From: Conexibacter arvalis
GTDB lineage: Bacteria > Actinomycetota > Thermoleophilia > Solirubrobacterales > Solirubrobacteraceae
DNA: 64,000 bases
Assembly (NCBI RefSeq): GCF_014199525.1
Contig: NZ_JACHNU010000002.1
Location: 726,147 to 790,146, forward strand
Direction: 5' to 3'
Positions 26,091 to 33,084 of this stretch are shown here, piece by piece. Within the stretch, counting starts at the first letter, position 1; each line of letters starts with the position of its first letter. Made by a program: the position numbers and the translations under genes. A model generated the notes under the pieces. The model did not search any database. It was given only the letters and a program-made list of their open reading frames with translations, and was not told the DNA's origin.

Positions 26091-27260
26091 TCAGCGGCCC
26101 AGCAGCGCGCAGACCGCGGCCGTCTGCAGCGCGCGCAGCCGCCTGAGCAGCGGGCCGTCGGGCGCCGGGATGTTGAGCGAGGTGGTGACGGAGCGGCGGC
26201 CGTCGGCGGTGGCGGCGGCCCACTGGGTGTAGCCGGGGAAGTTGCCGGTGTGGCCGTAGACGACGCCGCAGCGGGTCGTGTAGCGGAAGATCGCCAGGCC
26301 GGCGGCGTTGGCGCCCGGGCCGGGCGGGCTGGAGGCGCCGCGGACGAATCTCAGCTGCTCGCGCTGCTGGGCGGCGCCGAAGAAGGCGCGGCCGAGGTCG
26401 AGGCGGATGAAGCGGGCCAGCTCGCGCGGGGTCGAGACGATCGCGCCGGAGGCCCAGGCGCCGCTCGGGCTCAGGATGGTGCTGACGTCGACCGGTCTGG
26501 GCCCGGCGCCGACGAAGTAGCCGTGGATGAAGGGCGACGGCAGCGTGACGGTCGCGGGGAAGCTCGTCTGGCGCAGTCTGCCGGGGCGCAGCACGAGCTC
26601 GTCGAGCAGCCGGCCGTACGGTCTGCCGGTCACCGCCTCCGCGAGCAGGCCGACGACGATGTTGTCGGTGTTCGAGTAGGCGTAGCGGGTGCCGGGCGGG
26701 AAGGCGAGGCCGTCCGACCGCACCCAGTCGACGATCGTCTGCGGCGCGACGTGGCCGCGCGGGTCGCTCTCCGCCTGCTCGGCGAAGCCCTCGGATCTCG
26801 TGTAGTCGGGCAGGCCGCTCGTGTGGGCGAGCAGCTGCCGCACGGTCACCGCGTGCCACGCCGCCGGCAGGCCGGGCAGCCGCTCGCCGATCGCGTCGTC
26901 GAGACCGAGTCGGCCCTCCTGCGCGAGCCGCAGCGCGATCGCGCCGCTGTAGGCCTTCGCGACGCTCGCGATCCGCATGTGGTCGCCGGCGCGCGGCGCG
27001 CCGGGCCGCCGCACGTTCGCGCGGCCGGCGCGCAGCACCGTTGTGCGGCCGTTGCGGTGGAGCGTCATGATCGCCCCGGGCGGGCCGCCGCTCGCGGAGA
27101 CCAGCCGCTCGAGCCCGCGCCGCAGCTCGGCGTTCGTCGTCGCGCCGGAGGCGGTGCCGGAGGTCGCGAGCGGCAGCGCCAGCGCGACCGTCGCCGCGGC
27201 GGCGCAGGCGACGCGCGGGGCGGTGCATGTCCGGCGGCTGCGGCGGTGCGAACGGCTCAT
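26091..27260 (-). CDS. Secreted serine hydrolase of the beta-lactamase/D-Ala-D-Ala carboxypeptidase family
   Basis: A 389-aa exported enzyme. The signal peptide is CAAAATVALALPLATSGTASG. Catalytic motifs are S-x-x-K in ASVAKAYSG (about residue 98), Y-S-N in RYAYSNTDN and H-T-G in YGHTGNFPGY, as in class C-like serine hydrolases. It probably acts on peptidoglycan peptides or an ester/amide outside the membrane. I chose ATG 27260 because AAGGAGG lies 6 nt upstream. The frame continues further upstream into repeats without a signal peptide at its start. Several AGA Arg codons are present. It is a single-gene unit. Confidence 0.85.
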   Translation of the reverse strand: MSRSHRRSRRTCTAPRVACAAAATVALALPLATSGTASGATTNAELRRGLERLVSASGGPPGAIMTLHRNGRTTVLRAGRANVRRPGAPRAGDHMRIASVAKAYSGAIALRLAQEGRLGLDDAIGERLPGLPAAWHAVTVRQLLAHTSGLPDYTRSEGFAEQAESDPRGHVAPQTIVDWVRSDGLAFPPGTRYAYSNTDNIVVGLLAEAVTGRPYGRLLDELVLRPGRLRQTSFPATVTLPSPFIHGYFVGAGPRPVDVSTILSPSGAWASGAIVSTPRELARFIRLDLGRAFFGAAQQREQLRFVRGASSPPGPGANAAGLAIFRYTTRCGVVYGHTGNFPGYTQWAAATADGRRSVTTSLNIPAPDGPLLRRLRALQTAAVCALLGR

Positions 27261-27363
27261 GACGGCCTCCTTGGGGCGGGTCGGACGCGCCTCGGTCGCG
27301 CGACCGACCACTTTCGCGCATGACGCCGGCGGCGGCAACGCCCGACGTCCACGTGGCGCCGCC

Positions 27364-27523: not shown

Positions 27524-28396
27524 TCAGCCGCCGAGCACGACGAGGTCGAGCGCGGCGAGCCGCTCGGGGTCGGCGATCAGCTCGATCGCGGCGATCCGCC
27601 CATCGCGGGCCGTGAAGCGGTAGACGACCCGCGGTCTCCCCGCCCGCAGCCACACGACCGCGGCGTCGCCGTCGAGCAGCGCCGGCGTCGCGCCGCGCGC
27701 GTAGCGGCAGAAGCCGCCGACCTCCTCCGCGCCGCGCAGCTCGCGCGCGACGCCGATCCTGGCGGCGCTCGCGTCGGCCGTCAGCACGACGTCGGGCGCG
27801 AGCAGGCCGAGCAGCCGCTCGAACTCGCCGTCGCGGGCGGCCGCGAGGAACGCCTCGACCAGCTTCGCCTGCCGGACGCGGTCGGCCTCCCCGCTCGCGT
27901 CCTCGCGGCGGACGCGTCGGCGCGCGCGGCTCGCGAGCTGGCGGGCGGCGGCCTGGTTGCGCCCGACGATCGGCGCGATCTCCTCGAACGGCACGCCGAA
28001 CATGTCGTGGAGGACGAACGCGACCCGCTCGGCCGGCGAGAGCGCGTCGAGCACGACGAGCAGCGCCAGCCCGACCGACTCGGCGAGCAGCGCCTCCTGC
28101 TCGGGATCGGCCGCCTCGGCGGGATCGGCCGCCGGCTCGGACAGGTCGCCGTCGAGCGGCACCTCCGAGCGCACCCGCCGCGACTGCAGGACGTTGAGGC
28201 AGACCCGCGCGAGGACGGTCGTCAGCCAGCTGCCGAGGTTGTCGATCGCCTCCGCGTCGGTGCGGCTGAGCCGCAGCCACGCCTCCTGGACGGCGTCGTC
28301 GGCCTCGCTCGCCGAGCCGAGCATCCGGCGGGCGACGCCGGTCAGCCGCGGCCGCTGCTCCTCGAATCGCTCCGCCAGCCAGTCGGTGTCGTGCAT
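27524..28396 (-). CDS. ECF41-type RNA polymerase sigma factor (SigJ-like) with SnoaL-like C-terminal domain
   Basis: A 290-aa sigma factor. Region 2 (ARRMLGSASEADDAVQEAWLRLS) and region 4 (LSPAERVAFVLHDMFGVPFEEIA) are followed by a linker (about 170-185) and a SnoaL-like domain of about 100 residues (LVEAFLAAARDGEFERLLGLL, then VVYRFTARDGRIAAIELIADPERLA). In the ECF41 group this fused domain replaces a separate anti-sigma factor. Known ECF41 loci pair the sigma gene with an oxidoreductase, epimerase or CMD gene, and here an NmrA-like NAD(P)-binding protein is divergent. The intergenic region holds two copies of an ECF41-like promoter. Confidence 0.92.
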   Translation of the reverse strand: MHDTDWLAERFEEQRPRLTGVARRMLGSASEADDAVQEAWLRLSRTDAEAIDNLGSWLTTVLARVCLNVLQSRRVRSEVPLDGDLSEPAADPAEAADPEQEALLAESVGLALLVVLDALSPAERVAFVLHDMFGVPFEEIAPIVGRNQAAARQLASRARRRVRREDASGEADRVRQAKLVEAFLAAARDGEFERLLGLLAPDVVLTADASAARIGVARELRGAEEVGGFCRYARGATPALLDGDAAVVWLRAGRPRVVYRFTARDGRIAAIELIADPERLAALDLVVLGG

Positions 28397-28397
28397 C

Positions 28398-28424
28398 GGT
28401 CACATCTCCGTCTCGTGATCGGTC
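28398..28424 (+). promoter_or_regulatory. ECF41-type promoter driving the NmrA-like gene
   Basis: GGTCACA (28398-28404), 16 nt, GGTC (28421-28424). This is one base away from the published ECF41 consensus in each element (TGTCACA, 16 nt, CGTC). It points to the gene at 28486. Confidence 0.65.
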
Positions 28425-28434
28425 TACCGAGAGA

Positions 28435-28461
28435 GACCGGCGAGACGACGCCGATGTGACC
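28435..28461 (-). promoter_or_regulatory. ECF41-type promoter driving the sigma gene
   Basis: On the minus strand GGTCACA (28455-28461), exactly 16 nt, GGTC (28435-28438). It is identical in both elements to the divergent plus-strand copy and points to the sigma gene at 28396, so autoregulation is expected. Confidence 0.65.
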
Positions 28462-28485: not shown

Positions 28486-29310
28486 ATGACCACCACGACG
28501 GAGAGCGAGCGCGTCCGCGACCGTGCGCGCGGCCCGATCCTCGTCACCGGCGGCACCGGCACGCTCGGCCGCCTGCTCGTCCCGCGCCTGCGCGCGGCCG
28601 GGCGCGAGGTGCGGGTGCTGAGCCGCGCCGAACACCCGGCCGCCGGCGGCATCCGCTTCGCGCGCGGCGACCTGGCGACGGGCGAGGGCGTCGCGGCGGC
28701 GGTCGCCGGCGCGGAGGTCGTCGTCCACTGCGCCGGCAGCGCGAGAGGCGACGAAGAGAAGGCGCGCACGCTGGTGGAGGCGGCGTCGCGCGCCGGCGTG
28801 CGGCATCTGGTCTACATCTCGGTGGTCGGCGCCGACCGCGTCCCCGTCCGCAGCGGCGTCGACCGCGCGATGTTCGGCTACTACGCCGCCAAGCTCGCCG
28901 CCGAGCGGCTCGTCGCCGACTCCGGGATCCCGTGGACGACGCTGCGCGCGACGCAGTTCCACGACCTCGCCCTCACGACCGCGCGGCAGCTGGCGAAGCT
29001 GCCGCTGCTGCCGATCCCGTCCGGCTTCCAGGTCCAGCCGATCGACGCCGGCGAGGTCGCCGAGCGGCTGGCGGAGCTGGCGCTCGGCGAGCCGGCCGGT
29101 CTCGTGCCCGACGTCGGCGGCCCGCGGGTCCACGAGCTGCGCGCGCTCGTCCGCGACTACCTCCGAGCGACCGGCAGACACCGGCTGACCGTGCCGATCC
29201 GTCCCCCCGGCGGGGCCGCCCGCGCGATGCGCGCCGGCGCCAACCTCACCCTCGATCGCGCGGTCGGCCGCCGCACGTGGGAGGAGTTCCTCGCCGAGCG
29301 GGTCGGCTGA
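28486..29310 (+). CDS. NmrA-like/atypical SDR NAD(P)-binding oxidoreductase
   Basis: A 274-aa atypical short-chain dehydrogenase. The N-terminal VTGGTGTLGRLLVPRL is the dinucleotide-binding motif. VYISVVGADRVP and YYAAKLAAERLVADSGIPWT correspond to the active-site Y-x-x-K region (YYAAK). FQVQPIDAGEVAERL is typical of NmrA-like proteins. ATG 28486 has AAGGAGG 8 nt upstream, better than the GTG at 28456. It is divergent from the ECF41 sigma gene and preceded by a matching ECF promoter, so it is the probable target of that sigma factor, perhaps in a redox or stress response. Confidence 0.88.
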   Translation: MTTTTESERVRDRARGPILVTGGTGTLGRLLVPRLRAAGREVRVLSRAEHPAAGGIRFARGDLATGEGVAAAVAGAEVVVHCAGSARGDEEKARTLVEAASRAGVRHLVYISVVGADRVPVRSGVDRAMFGYYAAKLAAERLVADSGIPWTTLRATQFHDLALTTARQLAKLPLLPIPSGFQVQPIDAGEVAERLAELALGEPAGLVPDVGGPRVHELRALVRDYLRATGRHRLTVPIRPPGGAARAMRAGANLTLDRAVGRRTWEEFLAERVG

Positions 29311-29351: not shown

Positions 29352-30578
29352 TCAGCGCCGCCCGACGCGCAGCGCGAGCGTCGTGCTCGCGCTGCGGGAG
29401 CCGGCGCGGGCGACGACGCGCACGCGGTAGGAGCCGGGCCCGAGCCTGCGGTCGAGCCGCGTGCGCACGGCGCGTGCGCGCGGCCCGACGACGCGGACCG
29501 GCCCGCGCGCGACGACGCGCCCGCCTCTGCGGACCGACAGGCGCACGCGGCTGCGCGCGCCGACGCGGAGGCCGACGCGCAGCACCCGGCCGCGCAGCCG
29601 CGGGCGTCCGGTCGTCGCGAGCCGCAGGCGGGCCGCTCTTCTCGTGCGCGCGCCGGGGCGGCCGCCGGCGCGGCCATCGGAGCCCGCTCTGCCACCTGTC
29701 GTCCCGCGTCCGGCGCCCGAGCCGTTCTGGCCGGTCCGGCTCGACCCGCCGCCACCGCCGCCGGAGCCGTTCCGGCCCGGCCCGCTCGATCCGCCCCCGC
29801 CCGGGCCGCCACCCGCACCGCCGCCACCCGTGCCGCCACCCGCGCCACCGCCGCTCCCTCCGCCGCCGCCCGCGCCGCCGCCGCTCCCGCCGCCGCCCGA
29901 GCCGCCGCCCCCTCCGAGCGGCGTGCCGGTGGCGGGGTCGACGGCGCCGACGGTGACCGCGATCGTCCGCGCGTCGGCGATCGTCTCGCCCGACGGCCGT
30001 CTCGCACGGATCTCGAACGAGAGCACGTAGCGGCCCTCGGCGCCGAACGCCCAGTTGCCGTGAGCGTGCGTCCCGAGCGGGATCGCACGCGCGTCGGGCA
30101 GTCCGTCGCTGGTGTCGAACAGCTTGTCGACGGTGCCGAACGCGCCGGTCGTGAACAGCGCGAACGCGCCGGGCCCCTCGACGCCGGTCAGCGTCCACCG
30201 CACCGCGCCGGCGACCTCCGCGGAGGTCAGCTGCTCGGTGTTCCAGCCGGGCCACAGCACGCCGGCGCGCTGGACCTGCGGCAGCAGCCACAGCGGCGCG
30301 CCGGGCGCCCCCAGGAAGCCCATCGCCGCCGCGGACGGGACCGTCGTCGCCGACGCGGGCCGGGCGTGGAGGACGACGTCGGCGGGGTCGCGCCAGATGA
30401 CCGAGCCCGCGCCGGCGGTGCCGTCCTTGACCTGCAGGCGCAGCGCGCCGCCGACGAGGCGCGCGGCGACGTCGACGTGACCGTCGTCGAGCACGACCGC
30501 CGCGCCGGACGCGGCCGGCACGGCGATCGAGACGGCCAGCGCCGCCCCCATCGCCGCCGACACGGCGCGCGCGCTCAT
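29352..30578 (-). CDS. Secreted actinobacterial surface-repeat protein D (anchor_M-type domain, Gly linker, basic C-terminal domain)
   Basis: About 408 aa from ATG 30578. The signal peptide is AMGAALAVSIAVPAASG. The surface domain (residues 25-215) shows VLDDGHVDVAARL, LPQVQRAGVLWPGWNTE and the signature THAHGNWAFGAEGRYVLSF found in the TIGR03769-type repeats. A Gly/Ser linker of about 90 residues leads to an Arg-rich beta domain ending LALRVGRR. Three in-frame starts exist, at 30578, 30653 and 30728, 75 nt apart, because the start region is triplicated. The outermost overlaps the upstream stop by ATGA but would put 50 basic residues ahead of the signal peptide. It is the last gene of the metal ABC transporter locus. 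Confidence 0.78.
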   Translation of the reverse strand: MSARAVSAAMGAALAVSIAVPAASGAAVVLDDGHVDVAARLVGGALRLQVKDGTAGAGSVIWRDPADVVLHARPASATTVPSAAAMGFLGAPGAPLWLLPQVQRAGVLWPGWNTEQLTSAEVAGAVRWTLTGVEGPGAFALFTTGAFGTVDKLFDTSDGLPDARAIPLGTHAHGNWAFGAEGRYVLSFEIRARRPSGETIADARTIAVTVGAVDPATGTPLGGGGGSGGGGSGGGAGGGGGSGGGAGGGTGGGGAGGGPGGGGSSGPGRNGSGGGGGGSSRTGQNGSGAGRGTTGGRAGSDGRAGGRPGARTRRAARLRLATTGRPRLRGRVLRVGLRVGARSRVRLSVRRGGRVVARGPVRVVGPRARAVRTRLDRRLGPGSYRVRVVARAGSRSASTTLALRVGRR

Positions 30579-30745
30579 CGCGCCGACACGCGCAGCGCCA
30601 CCGATCTCGCCACGCCCCGTCCGCCGACGCGCCGGTGCGACCCGCACGCTCATCGCGCCGTCACGCGCGGCGCGATCGATCTCGCCACGCGCCGTGCGCC
30701 GGCGCGCCGGTGCGACGCGCGCGCTCATCGCGCCGCCACGCGCAG
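30570..30745 (-). repeat. 75-bp tandem repeat spanning a stop/start junction (three copies)
   Basis: Start-codon contexts CGATGAGCG recur at 30728, 30653 and 30578, exactly 75 bp apart. Before each ATGA the sequence resembles the last codons of the upstream gene (reading IALRVAAR, IAPRVTAR and VALRVSAR before TGA). After the first two ATGs the unit encodes VAPARRRT. The junction between the two surface-protein genes has thus been duplicated twice. Confidence 0.85.
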
Positions 30746-32179
30746 CGCGATCGTTCTGGTCACGACTCTGCCCCTCGCGCGCGCCTTGACGACGACGCGG
30801 TAGCGGCCGGGAGCGAGCTTGCGGCCGAGCCGCACGCGCACGCGGCCGTCGCTCGCGCGCACCGCGCGCGGCTTCGCCCCGGCGACGAGCCGTCTGCCCT
30901 TGCGGACGCGGACGGTCAGCCGCGCGCTGCGGTCGACGCGCAGGCGCAACGTCAGGCGGCGGCCGTCGAGGCGCGCGGCGCCGAGCGTCAGGCGCGGGGC
31001 CGCCGCTCTCCCGCCCGGCGCGCCCGGCCGCGGCTGCGCGGGCGGCTCCGGAGCCGGCGGGACGGGCGGCGCGGGCAGGATCGGCGGTCCGGGCTCGGTC
31101 GGCGGCGTCGGATCGACCGGGGCCGGATCCGGATCCGGCCCCGGCCCGTGGCCGTGGTGGTCTTCGACGTGGATCGTCACGGCCGGCGAGGTCGCGATCT
31201 CGTCGTGACCGTGGCCGTAGAGCGTGACGCGGTACTGGCAGCCGTCGTGGCGCAGCTCGGCGACCAGCTCGTGGGTCGCGCCGCCGCCGACCTCGGCGAA
31301 CTCGGTCGCGTCGCCGCAGCGCGCGAACCAGTGGTAGTGGTGCTCGCCGCTGTCCGGCGTCTGGACGGCGTGCAGCGTGATCGTGTCGCCCGGGTGGTAG
31401 TGGCCCTTCAGCCCGCCGATCGAGAGCACGGGCACGACGGGGTCGGGGTCGTCCGGCAGGTCGGCGAGGTCGCCGACGAAGATGCGGTACTCGACCGGCC
31501 CGCTGCTGACCTCCGCGCCGCCGAGCGGCGTCGCGCTGACCTCGAAGCGCAGTCTGTAGAGCCCTCTCGCGCCGAACGCCCACGCGAAGTGCGCATGCGT
31601 CCCGGCGTGCATCGAGGTCGTGTCCGGCAGGCCGTCGGCGCTGTTGAAGCGGATCCCGCTCGGCTGGAGCCCGAACGCCCCCTCCTCGTACAGCTGGAAG
31701 GCGGCCGGCCCGTCGACCGACAGCAGTCTCCACGCGAATCTGTCGCCCGCGACGGCGCCGTTCGGGATCTGCTCGCTCGACCAGCCCGGCCACAGCAGGT
31801 CGGGGTCCTGCGTCTGCGGCAGCATCCAGACGGTCGAGCCGGCCGGCCCCAGCGTGTCGTAGTAGATCTGCGGGATCCCGGCCGGGATCGTGAAGGCGGC
31901 CTGCGGCTTCACGTGCAGCAGCACGTCGCCCGGGTCCCGCTCGACCGGCGCCGCACCGGTGTCGTCGTGGAGGCGCACCCTCAACGCGCCGTCGTCGAGG
32001 TGGACGCCGACCGCGTCGACGTGGCCGGCCGACAGCACGTGCCGGTCCTGGGTCGGCAGCTCGGCCGAGGCGCTCGCCGGCGCCAGCGCGGCGACGAGCG
32101 CTGCAGACAGCCCGAGCATCGATGTGACCGTGCGTCGCCCGCGGGGACGCGACGGCCGATGGCGCATGGTGATCGTCAC
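30725..32179 (-). CDS. Secreted actinobacterial surface-repeat protein C (anchor_M-type domain, His-rich linker, basic C-terminal domain)
   Basis: About 484 aa from GTG 32179 (AAGGGGAG 3 nt upstream), with ATG 32167 as an alternative. The signal peptide is followed by a surface domain (HVLSAGHVDAVGVHL, LPQTQDPDLLWPGW, THAHFAWAFGARGLYRLRF). Next comes a second Ig-like domain with HYHPGDTITL and HHYHWFARCGD, then a His/Asp/Pro-rich linker (DHHGHGPGPDPD) and an Arg-rich beta domain ending TIALRVAAR. The many His residues fit metal binding at the surface. It lies downstream of the permease gene and a Fur/Zur-like box, so it may be transcribed separately. Confidence 0.8.
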   Translation of the reverse strand: MTITMRHRPSRPRGRRTVTSMLGLSAALVAALAPASASAELPTQDRHVLSAGHVDAVGVHLDDGALRVRLHDDTGAAPVERDPGDVLLHVKPQAAFTIPAGIPQIYYDTLGPAGSTVWMLPQTQDPDLLWPGWSSEQIPNGAVAGDRFAWRLLSVDGPAAFQLYEEGAFGLQPSGIRFNSADGLPDTTSMHAGTHAHFAWAFGARGLYRLRFEVSATPLGGAEVSSGPVEYRIFVGDLADLPDDPDPVVPVLSIGGLKGHYHPGDTITLHAVQTPDSGEHHYHWFARCGDATEFAEVGGGATHELVAELRHDGCQYRVTLYGHGHDEIATSPAVTIHVEDHHGHGPGPDPDPAPVDPTPPTEPGPPILPAPPVPPAPEPPAQPRPGAPGGRAAAPRLTLGAARLDGRRLTLRLRVDRSARLTVRVRKGRRLVAGAKPRAVRASDGRVRVRLGRKLAPGRYRVVVKARARGRVVTRTIALRVAAR

Positions 32180-32215
32180 CAGCTCCCCTTCCGTGTCGTG
32201 ATTCGTCGCGACACT

Positions 32216-32245
32216 ATCAAGAATGAGAATCAATCCCATTTTGAT
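32216..32245. promoter_or_regulatory. Fur/Zur-like box upstream of surface-protein gene C
   Basis: An AT-rich imperfect palindrome, ATCAAGAATGAG then AATCAATC then CCATTTTGAT, lies across the permease stop codon and upstream of the gene starting at 32179. AATGAGAATCA resembles Fur-family boxes. It stands out sharply in this GC-rich window. Zur rather than Fur control is inferred from the transporter type. Confidence 0.5.
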
Positions 32246-33084
32246 CGCTTGGCGATCAATCCCTGCCGCGGCGCGAGGAACCACGCCGCGAGGAAGAAGG
32301 CGGTCAGGACGAGCACGATCGTGCCCCCGGTCGGGTAGTCCCACGACCACGAGACGTACAGGCCGACGAGCGCGGCGAGTCCGCCGATCGCCGGCGCGAG
32401 CGCCATCATCGCGCCGAGCCGGTCGGTCAGCAGGCGCGCGGTCGCCGCGGGGGTGATCAGCAGCGCGAGCACGAGGATGTTGCCGATCGTCTGGACGCTG
32501 ATGACGACGGCGAGCGTGACGAGCACGTAGAGCACGAGGTCCAACGCGAAGACCCGCAGCCCCATCGCCCGCGCCGTCTCGCGGTCGAGCGAGACCGTCA
32601 CCAGCTCCTTGTGGAGCAGCAGTGCGACGCCGAGGACGACCACGCCGGTCCCGGCGACGATCGCGACGTCCTCGTCCGGGATCCCCGTGATCGAGCCGAA
32701 CAGGAACTGCTGCAGCGAGCCGGCGTAGCCGGGCGCGCGCGAGATCACCACGATCCCGAGCGCGAAGGCGGCGACGAAGAAGACGCCGATCACCGAGTCC
32801 TCGCGCAGCCGCCGATTCTGCGAGAAGACGGCGACCAGCACGGCCGTCGCGACCCCGGCGACGACGCCGCCGAGCACGAGGCTGCCGCCGAGCACGAACG
32901 CGACCGCGAGGCCGGGAAAGACGGCGTGCGCGACGGCGTCGCCGATGAAGGCCATCCCGCGCAGCACGACGTAGCAGCCGACGACGCCGCAGACGATCGA
33001 CGACATCACCGCGACGAGCAGCGCCTTCGGGAGGAAGGCGAGGTCGGGGTTGAGCAGGTCGCCGACGAACTCCGCCGGCGACAT
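32230..33084 (-). CDS. Metal (Zn/Mn-type) ABC transporter permease, anchored-repeat type
   Basis: A 284-aa ABC-3 family permease (ZnuB/MntB-like) with about eight hydrophobic segments: VVGCYVVLRGMAFIGDAVAHAVFPG early, SLDRETARAMGLRVFALDL in the cytoplasmic loop that contacts the ATPase, and TIGNILVLALLITPAATARLL. It should move a divalent cation across the membrane. ATG 33084 shares a base with the ATPase stop (TGATG). It corresponds to the permease of the anchored-repeat ABC system (TIGR03770-like family from general knowledge). Confidence 0.9.
   Translation of the reverse strand: MSPAEFVGDLLNPDLAFLPKALLVAVMSSIVCGVVGCYVVLRGMAFIGDAVAHAVFPGLAVAFVLGGSLVLGGVVAGVATAVLVAVFSQNRRLREDSVIGVFFVAAFALGIVVISRAPGYAGSLQQFLFGSITGIPDEDVAIVAGTGVVVLGVALLLHKELVTVSLDRETARAMGLRVFALDLVLYVLVTLAVVISVQTIGNILVLALLITPAATARLLTDRLGAMMALAPAIGGLAALVGLYVSWSWDYPTGGTIVLVLTAFFLAAWFLAPRQGLIAKRSKWD

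What the first reader, a model, noticed from the sequence alone, without database searches (positions are those of the whole stretch)
28398..28461. Mirror-image ECF41 promoters between the sigma gene and its presumed target
GGTCACA-16 nt-GGTC occurs on both strands within 64 bp, once facing the sigma gene and once facing the NmrA-like gene. Both match the ECF41 consensus (TGTCACA, 16 nt, CGTC) with one change per element. The -35 elements form an inverted repeat, CGGTCACATC/GATGTGACCG. This predicts a compact switch in which one sigma factor turns on itself and its partner together, using a slightly altered recognition sequence.
Basis: partly seen in the sequence, partly recalled or inferred. 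Interest (0 to 1): 0.62.

Follow-up and report, generated by a model that had tools for sequence, protein, structure and literature searches.

The report
Two-way promoter of a sigma factor
A bacterial gene switch (an ECF41-type sigma factor) and its likely target gene are read in opposite directions from two promoters that interlock on the same 64 base pairs, so that only one polymerase can probably sit there at a time; relatives keep nearly the same spacing, and one amino acid of the sigma factor tracks one DNA letter of the promoter.

Summary
GGTCACA-N16-GGTC stands on both strands at 28398-28424 (+) and 28435-28461 (-), and the whole genome holds only one other exact copy. The sigma gene (27524-28396, -) is ECF41/SigJ-like. 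ECF41 promoters in front of both divergent genes were reported in 2012, so the mirror pair as such is known. Comparison with 172 related loci adds three points. (1) The promoters lie face to face and interlock. Of 84 loci with the motif on both strands, 60 place the two -35 elements 61-64 bp apart, and no other positive spacing occurs. The same layout is found in Rhizobium. (2) The first -10 base follows residue 68 of the sigma factor: Asn (or Thr) goes with G or T, Asp with C. There is no real exception on the sigma-gene side (one on the target side), with about 12 switches on the tree. The GGTC variant is therefore a matched specificity, distinct from the two nearest Asp68 paralogues in this genome. 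(3) The first -35 base is free. All of this is comparative inference; nothing was measured.

The parts
27524..28396 (-). ECF41/SigJ-type sigma factor gene (290 aa, stop included)
   Evidence: Pfam sigma-70 regions 2 and 4; near full-length match to the SigJ family model and to SigJ structure 5xe7, E 6.9e-42, residues 8-281
28193..28195 (-). codon of sigma residue Asn68 (Trp57 + 11 in the promoter-reading helix), the residue that tracks the first -10 base
   Evidence: mutual information 1.00 bit over 127 loci, next column 0.41; about 12 paired switches on the tree
28455..28461 (-). -35 element (GGTCACA) of the promoter reading into the sigma gene
   Evidence: position conserved in relatives
28435..28438 (-). 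-10 element (GGTC) of the promoter reading into the sigma gene
28398..28404 (+). -35 element (GGTCACA) of the promoter reading into the NmrA-like gene; lies between the sigma gene's likely ribosome site and its ATG
   Evidence: at -4 to +1 of the sigma start codon in 52 of 60 face-to-face loci
28421..28424 (+). -10 element (GGTC) of the promoter reading into the NmrA-like gene
28421..28438 (.). shared region that either polymerase would melt; predicted starts near 28433 (+) and 28425-28427 (-)
   Evidence: start 8-10 nt after the -10 element, from the S. meliloti start site and from base composition of unpaired promoters; not measured here
28486..29310 (+). NmrA-like / NAD(P)-binding epimerase-type oxidoreductase gene, presumed target
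   Evidence: Pfam NAD_binding_10 9.3e-28, NmrA 1.4e-15

Best explanation
The 64 bp form a bidirectional promoter for one ECF41-type sigma factor. Holoenzyme carrying this sigma can bind in either of two opposite orientations. Each orientation uses its own -35 and -10 element, but both melt the same DNA segment (about 28421-28438) and start a few base pairs apart, so they exclude each other. One orientation makes sigma mRNA (positive autoregulation), the other makes the NmrA-like oxidoreductase mRNA. Competition should tie the two outputs together and keep autoregulation from running away. Asn68 of the sigma factor accepts G (or T) as the first -10 base where relatives with Asp68 use C, which would separate this locus from the two nearest ECF41 paralogues of the same genome (Asp68, CGTC sites nearby). 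Shown by sequence: the sites, their geometry, its conservation, and the residue-base match. Inferred: activity, start points, mutual exclusion, dampened autoregulation, insulation.
For: Sites exact and rare. In 172 relatives, 84 have the strict motif on both strands: 60 with -35 starts 61-64 bp apart, 14 back to back, 10 other negative spacings, no other positive spacing. Same layout (61 bp) in Rhizobium plasmids, one with an annotated divergent carboxymuconolactone decarboxylase. At 61 bp the bases outside the elements are on average 48% identical, lowest pair 20%, so the distance outlives the sequence. The first -10 base agrees between the two promoters of a locus (45 of 63 identical, 21.8 expected, 0 of 10000 shuffles), and Asp68 loci are C/C while Asn/Thr68 loci are G or T with one exception. 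Residue 68: 1.00 bit, next 0.41; 12 changes of base and 12 of residue on a tree built without that column, 12 independent pairs on the best tree, the 4 on well-supported branches all in the same direction. ECF41 start site known 9 nt after CGTC in S. meliloti (PMC3616915; PMC6180224), and unpaired promoters favour T-G-A at positions 8-10. The equivalent residue of M. tuberculosis sigma-H (N92, Trp+11) contacts the -10 element DNA (PMC6411747).
Against: No transcript data for this organism. Mutual exclusion follows from geometry alone. In E. coli, basal sigma-70 bidirectional promoters were too weak for competition to matter (PMC12825309), and the same could hold here. Only 4 of 12 residue-base switches lie on well-supported branches. 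The -10 base that tracks residue 68 is one position upstream of the pair that sigma-H N92 contacts, so the contact is not proven.
Confidence: 0.75

Rival explanations
1. Two independent promoters that merely sit close together because the intergenic region is short; the overlap has no regulatory effect.
For: Basal bidirectional promoters in E. coli show no competition (PMC12825309). Back-to-back pairs also exist in relatives, so overlap is not required.
Against: Compactness would not fix the distance at 61-64 bp in 60 loci with differing spacers and in another phylum. No spacing just outside this range is seen with the strict motif.
Confidence: 0.2
2. Only the target-side promoter is used; the sigma-side site is a relic or decoy and the sigma gene is driven by another promoter.
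For: In B. licheniformis and R. sphaeroides the only detected target was the neighbouring gene or its operon (PMC3426412).
Against: The sigma-side site is at least as well kept: last -35 base A in 62 of 63, against 51 of 63 on the target side. It also occurs alone in 45 loci that lack the opposite site.
Confidence: 0.08
3. The inverted repeat is an operator for a dimeric repressor or activator, not a pair of promoters.
For: The arms CGGTCACATC/GATGTGACCG are perfect inverted repeats.
Against: The match extends to the -10 elements at an exact 16-nt spacer, which an operator does not need, and the -10 base varies with the sigma factor's own residue 68. Arms 46 bp apart are unusual for a dimer site.
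Confidence: 0.03

Closest known systems
ECF41 sigma factor loci with divergent COE gene (Wecke et al. 2012, PMC3426412)
   Same: Sigma type, neighbour type (epimerase/oxidoreductase), promoter motif TGTCACA-N16-CGTC, motif often in front of both divergent genes (55 divergent loci: 36 with sigma-side, 41 with target-side motif).
   Different: -10 is GGTC instead of CGTC, matched by Asn68. A search of that text found no mention of 'face' and only one use of 'overlap' (for genes), so the face-to-face layout does not appear to be described.
Bidirectional sigma-70 promoters (Warman, Grainger and colleagues; PMC10268837, PMC12825309)
   Same: Pseudo-symmetrical DNA engaged by RNA polymerase in two opposite orientations, divergent starts a few bp apart, one binding event excludes the other.
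   Different: There the usual start distance is 18 bp with a shared or overlapping -10 element. Here there are two full -35 elements and two separate -10 elements, predicted starts about 6-9 bp apart, and an ECF sigma that controls its own gene.
M. tuberculosis SigJ (5xe7)
   Same: Near full-length sequence match including the C-terminal extension.
   Different: SigJ carries Asp at the residue equivalent to Asn68 (alignment).
M. tuberculosis sigma-H recognition of the -10 element (PMC6411747)
   Same: Asn at Trp+11 (N92) makes a base contact in the -10 element.
   Different: N92 contacts the -11 pair; here the covarying base is one position further upstream.

Membership tests
ECF41 sigma factors | Sigma regions 2 and 4 only, no region 3 | tested here: met
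ECF41 sigma factors | C-terminal extension of SnoaL type fused to the sigma factor | tested here: met
   phmmer match to SigJ (5xe7) up to residue 281 and to the SigJ family model up to residue 284, though below that model's cut-off (236.9 against 271 bits). Pfam does not report SnoaL on its own.
ECF41 sigma factors | Neighbouring carboxymuconolactone decarboxylase, oxidoreductase or epimerase gene | tested here: met
   NAD_binding_10/NmrA/Epimerase matches of 28486-29310
ECF41 sigma factors | Promoter TGTCACA-N16-CGTC | tested here: inconclusive
   Core NGTCACA-N16-NGTC met exactly; the first base of each element differs from the consensus, as it does in many close relatives
ECF41 sigma factors | No separate anti-sigma factor gene next to the sigma gene | not tested
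   Neighbouring reading frames were listed but not searched for anti-sigma domains.
Bidirectional promoters (Warman/Grainger definition) | Divergent start sites 7-25 bp apart | not testable with these tools
   Predicted about 6-8 bp here, borderline; needs start-site mapping
Bidirectional promoters (Warman/Grainger definition) | Key -10 and start positions overlap reciprocally on the two strands | tested here: inconclusive
   At 61-bp spacing the 9th base after each -10 element is the G paired with the last C of the opposite -10 element in all 32 loci. In the window (63 bp) the overlap is looser.

The most novel reading that the evidence does not exclude
ECF41 loci carry a conserved, portable device. 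It consists of a sigma factor plus an interlocked bidirectional promoter whose fixed 61-64 bp register makes autoregulation and output compete for one melted region, with the output gene exchanged in evolution (decarboxylase, epimerase, ABC or MFS transporter). A single sigma residue (Asn/Thr or Asp at 68) sets the first -10 base, which would keep paralogous copies in one genome apart.
Probability: 0.5. Interest if true: 0.65.

Novelty: new variant of a known kind. Interest (0 to 1): 0.5.

Why it matters
If true, it gives a natural example of self-limiting positive autoregulation built from DNA geometry alone, in a widespread sigma factor group whose signal and role are largely unknown. The residue-base match also offers a one-letter rule for making ECF41 sigma/promoter pairs that do not cross-talk.

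Tried and rejected
Genome scan for further targets: only one more exact site (C4:115185); it falls within overlapping reading frames with no clear gene start downstream, so it was not counted as a target. A looser pattern finds CGTC-type sites near two ECF41 paralogues (C3, C6) and a few elsewhere. -35 first base as part of the altered specificity: rejected, it varies freely. Motifs DGGGK and NPDKL, recalled from memory as ECF41 marks, are absent from nearly all relatives (1 and 2 of 169), so they were dropped as a test. The paper most likely to hold a published residue-base table (Todor 2020, PMC7776599) and the SigJ structure paper are not held, so earlier publication of the residue-68 rule cannot be excluded. 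No structure prediction was run, because the solved SigJ chain already matches nearly full length. A first residue assignment to sigma-E N80 (second checkpoint note) was wrong: counting from the invariant Trp gives Trp+11, that is sigma-H N92.

Full report
Observation. The two sites are exact, rare and correctly placed. GGTCACA-N16-GGTC occurs at 28398-28424 (+) and 28435-28461 (-); with a spacer of 14-18 the window would hold 0.11 by chance and no shuffle had two. The 5.2-Mb genome holds one further exact copy, in a region without a clear gene start behind it. The - site reads into a sigma factor gene whose ATG is at 28396, the + site into a gene with ATG at 28486 behind GGAGG.

The genes. 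The sigma factor has regions 2 and 4 and a C-terminal extension. It matches the SigJ family model over nearly its whole length (236.9 bits, below the curated cut-off of 271) and the solved SigJ chain 5xe7 at E 6.9e-42 over residues 8-281. The other gene encodes an NAD(P)-binding, NmrA/epimerase-like oxidoreductase. Sigma gene, epimerase/oxidoreductase neighbour and promoter core together fit ECF41.

What was known. Wecke et al. 2012 (PMC3426412) defined TGTCACA-N16-CGTC, found the motif in front of both the ECF41 and the target genes, and tabulated 55 divergent loci with 36 sigma-side and 41 target-side motifs. They state that in divergent loci often both genes carry it. The mirror pair as such is therefore not new.

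Geometry. The promoters do not stand back to back. Each -35 element lies on the far side, inside the other transcript's leader, and the -10 elements face each other 10 bp apart. I collected 172 distinct relatives of the sigma gene. With the strict motif required on both strands, 84 loci qualify. In 60 the first bases of the two -35 elements are 61-64 bp apart, in 14 the promoters are back to back (mostly Micromonospora, -22 bp), and 10 have other negative spacings. No locus has a positive spacing outside 61-64. Two Rhizobium plasmid loci show 61 bp as well, one with an annotated carboxymuconolactone decarboxylase on the other side. Among the 32 loci at 61 bp, bases outside the elements are 48% identical on average and as low as 20%, while the distance is unchanged. 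The target-side -35 element sits at -4 to +1 of the sigma start codon in 52 of 60 loci. The loci are not independent of each other, so these counts are not probabilities.

Start sites. In Sinorhizobium meliloti the ECF41 promoter lies 9 nt upstream of the mapped start (PMC3616915), and the printed sequence ends with G as the ninth base after CGTC (PMC6180224; the typeface that marks the start is lost in the text, so that G is read from where the sequence ends). Among 45 relatives with the sigma-side promoter only, positions 8-10 favour T (0.58), G (0.62) and A (0.56), an independent hint of the same start. In the 61-bp loci the ninth base is always the G paired with the last C of the opposite -10 element: each start point is the edge of the other promoter. 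In the window (63 bp) the predicted starts are G 28433 (+) and G 28427 or A 28425 (-). Both polymerases would thus melt the same segment, about 28421-28438. That they exclude each other is inference from geometry. It is the published logic of sigma-70 bidirectional promoters, for which competition was shown to matter when one direction is strongly active but not at basal level (PMC12825309).

Specificity. Within a locus the first -10 base of the two promoters agrees far more often than by chance (45 of 63, expected 21.8, 0 of 10000 shuffles), while the first -35 base shows only a weak tendency (29, expected 20.7) and takes T, G or C. Across 127 loci one sigma residue, number 68, carries 1.00 bit about that base; the next residue carries 0.41. 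Asn goes with G (58) or T (4), Thr with G (3), Asp with C (60); one Ser and one locus with an undetermined residue go with C. On the target side there is one exception, an Asn68 locus with C (L095). On a tree of 88 sigma factors built without that column, base and residue each change 12 times. Twelve independent pairs exist on the best tree, four of them on well-supported branches, and those four all go the same way. Close pairs at 74-76% identity differ in both at once, for example L019 (Asp/C) and L207 (Asn/G). Residue 68 is Trp57 + 11, the place of sigma-H N92, which contacts the -10 element in a crystal structure (PMC6411747). An acceptor (Asp) for the amino group of C, and Asn for G or T, is chemically sensible but is inference. 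In this genome the two nearest ECF41 paralogues carry Asp68, and CGTC-type sites lie near them, so the GGTC/Asn68 pair would keep this locus separate.

Targets. Of 54 proteins on the far side of face-to-face promoters, 22 are carboxymuconolactone decarboxylase-like, 10 NAD-binding/NmrA-like, 7 ABC ATPases and 5 MFS transporters. The sigma gene with its two-way promoter thus looks like a unit that has been combined with different output genes.

Verdict. The mirror pair is a known ECF41 theme. The conserved interlocking register and the residue-base rule go beyond what I found in the papers I could read, but one likely source (Todor 2020) was not available.

Noticed in passing
L221:2390-2510 and L224: Rhizobium plasmid ECF41 loci have the same face-to-face promoter pair at 61 bp as actinobacterial loci, which suggests either great age or transfer between phyla.
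   Followed up: partly
Micromonospora loci, e.g. L009, L010, L012: A second fixed layout: back-to-back promoters with -35 starts 22 bp apart, nearly all with GGTC and Asn68.
   Followed up: partly
L095: The only Asn68 locus with a C at the target-side -10 element (sigma side G).
   Followed up: no
L225 (Streptomyces camelliae plasmid): An ECF41-like sigma gene lies inside a stretch with a type III polyketide synthase and an aromatic prenyltransferase, which hints at control of secondary metabolism.
   Followed up: no
window 26091-27338 (-): Reading frame next to the sigma gene that looks by eye like a secreted serine hydrolase (beta-lactamase/carboxypeptidase type); not searched.
   Followed up: no
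window 29352-31793 (-) and 30725-32350 (-): Two overlapping-coordinate frames containing related secreted-looking, glycine/proline-rich proteins, possibly tandem paralogues; not searched.
   Followed up: no
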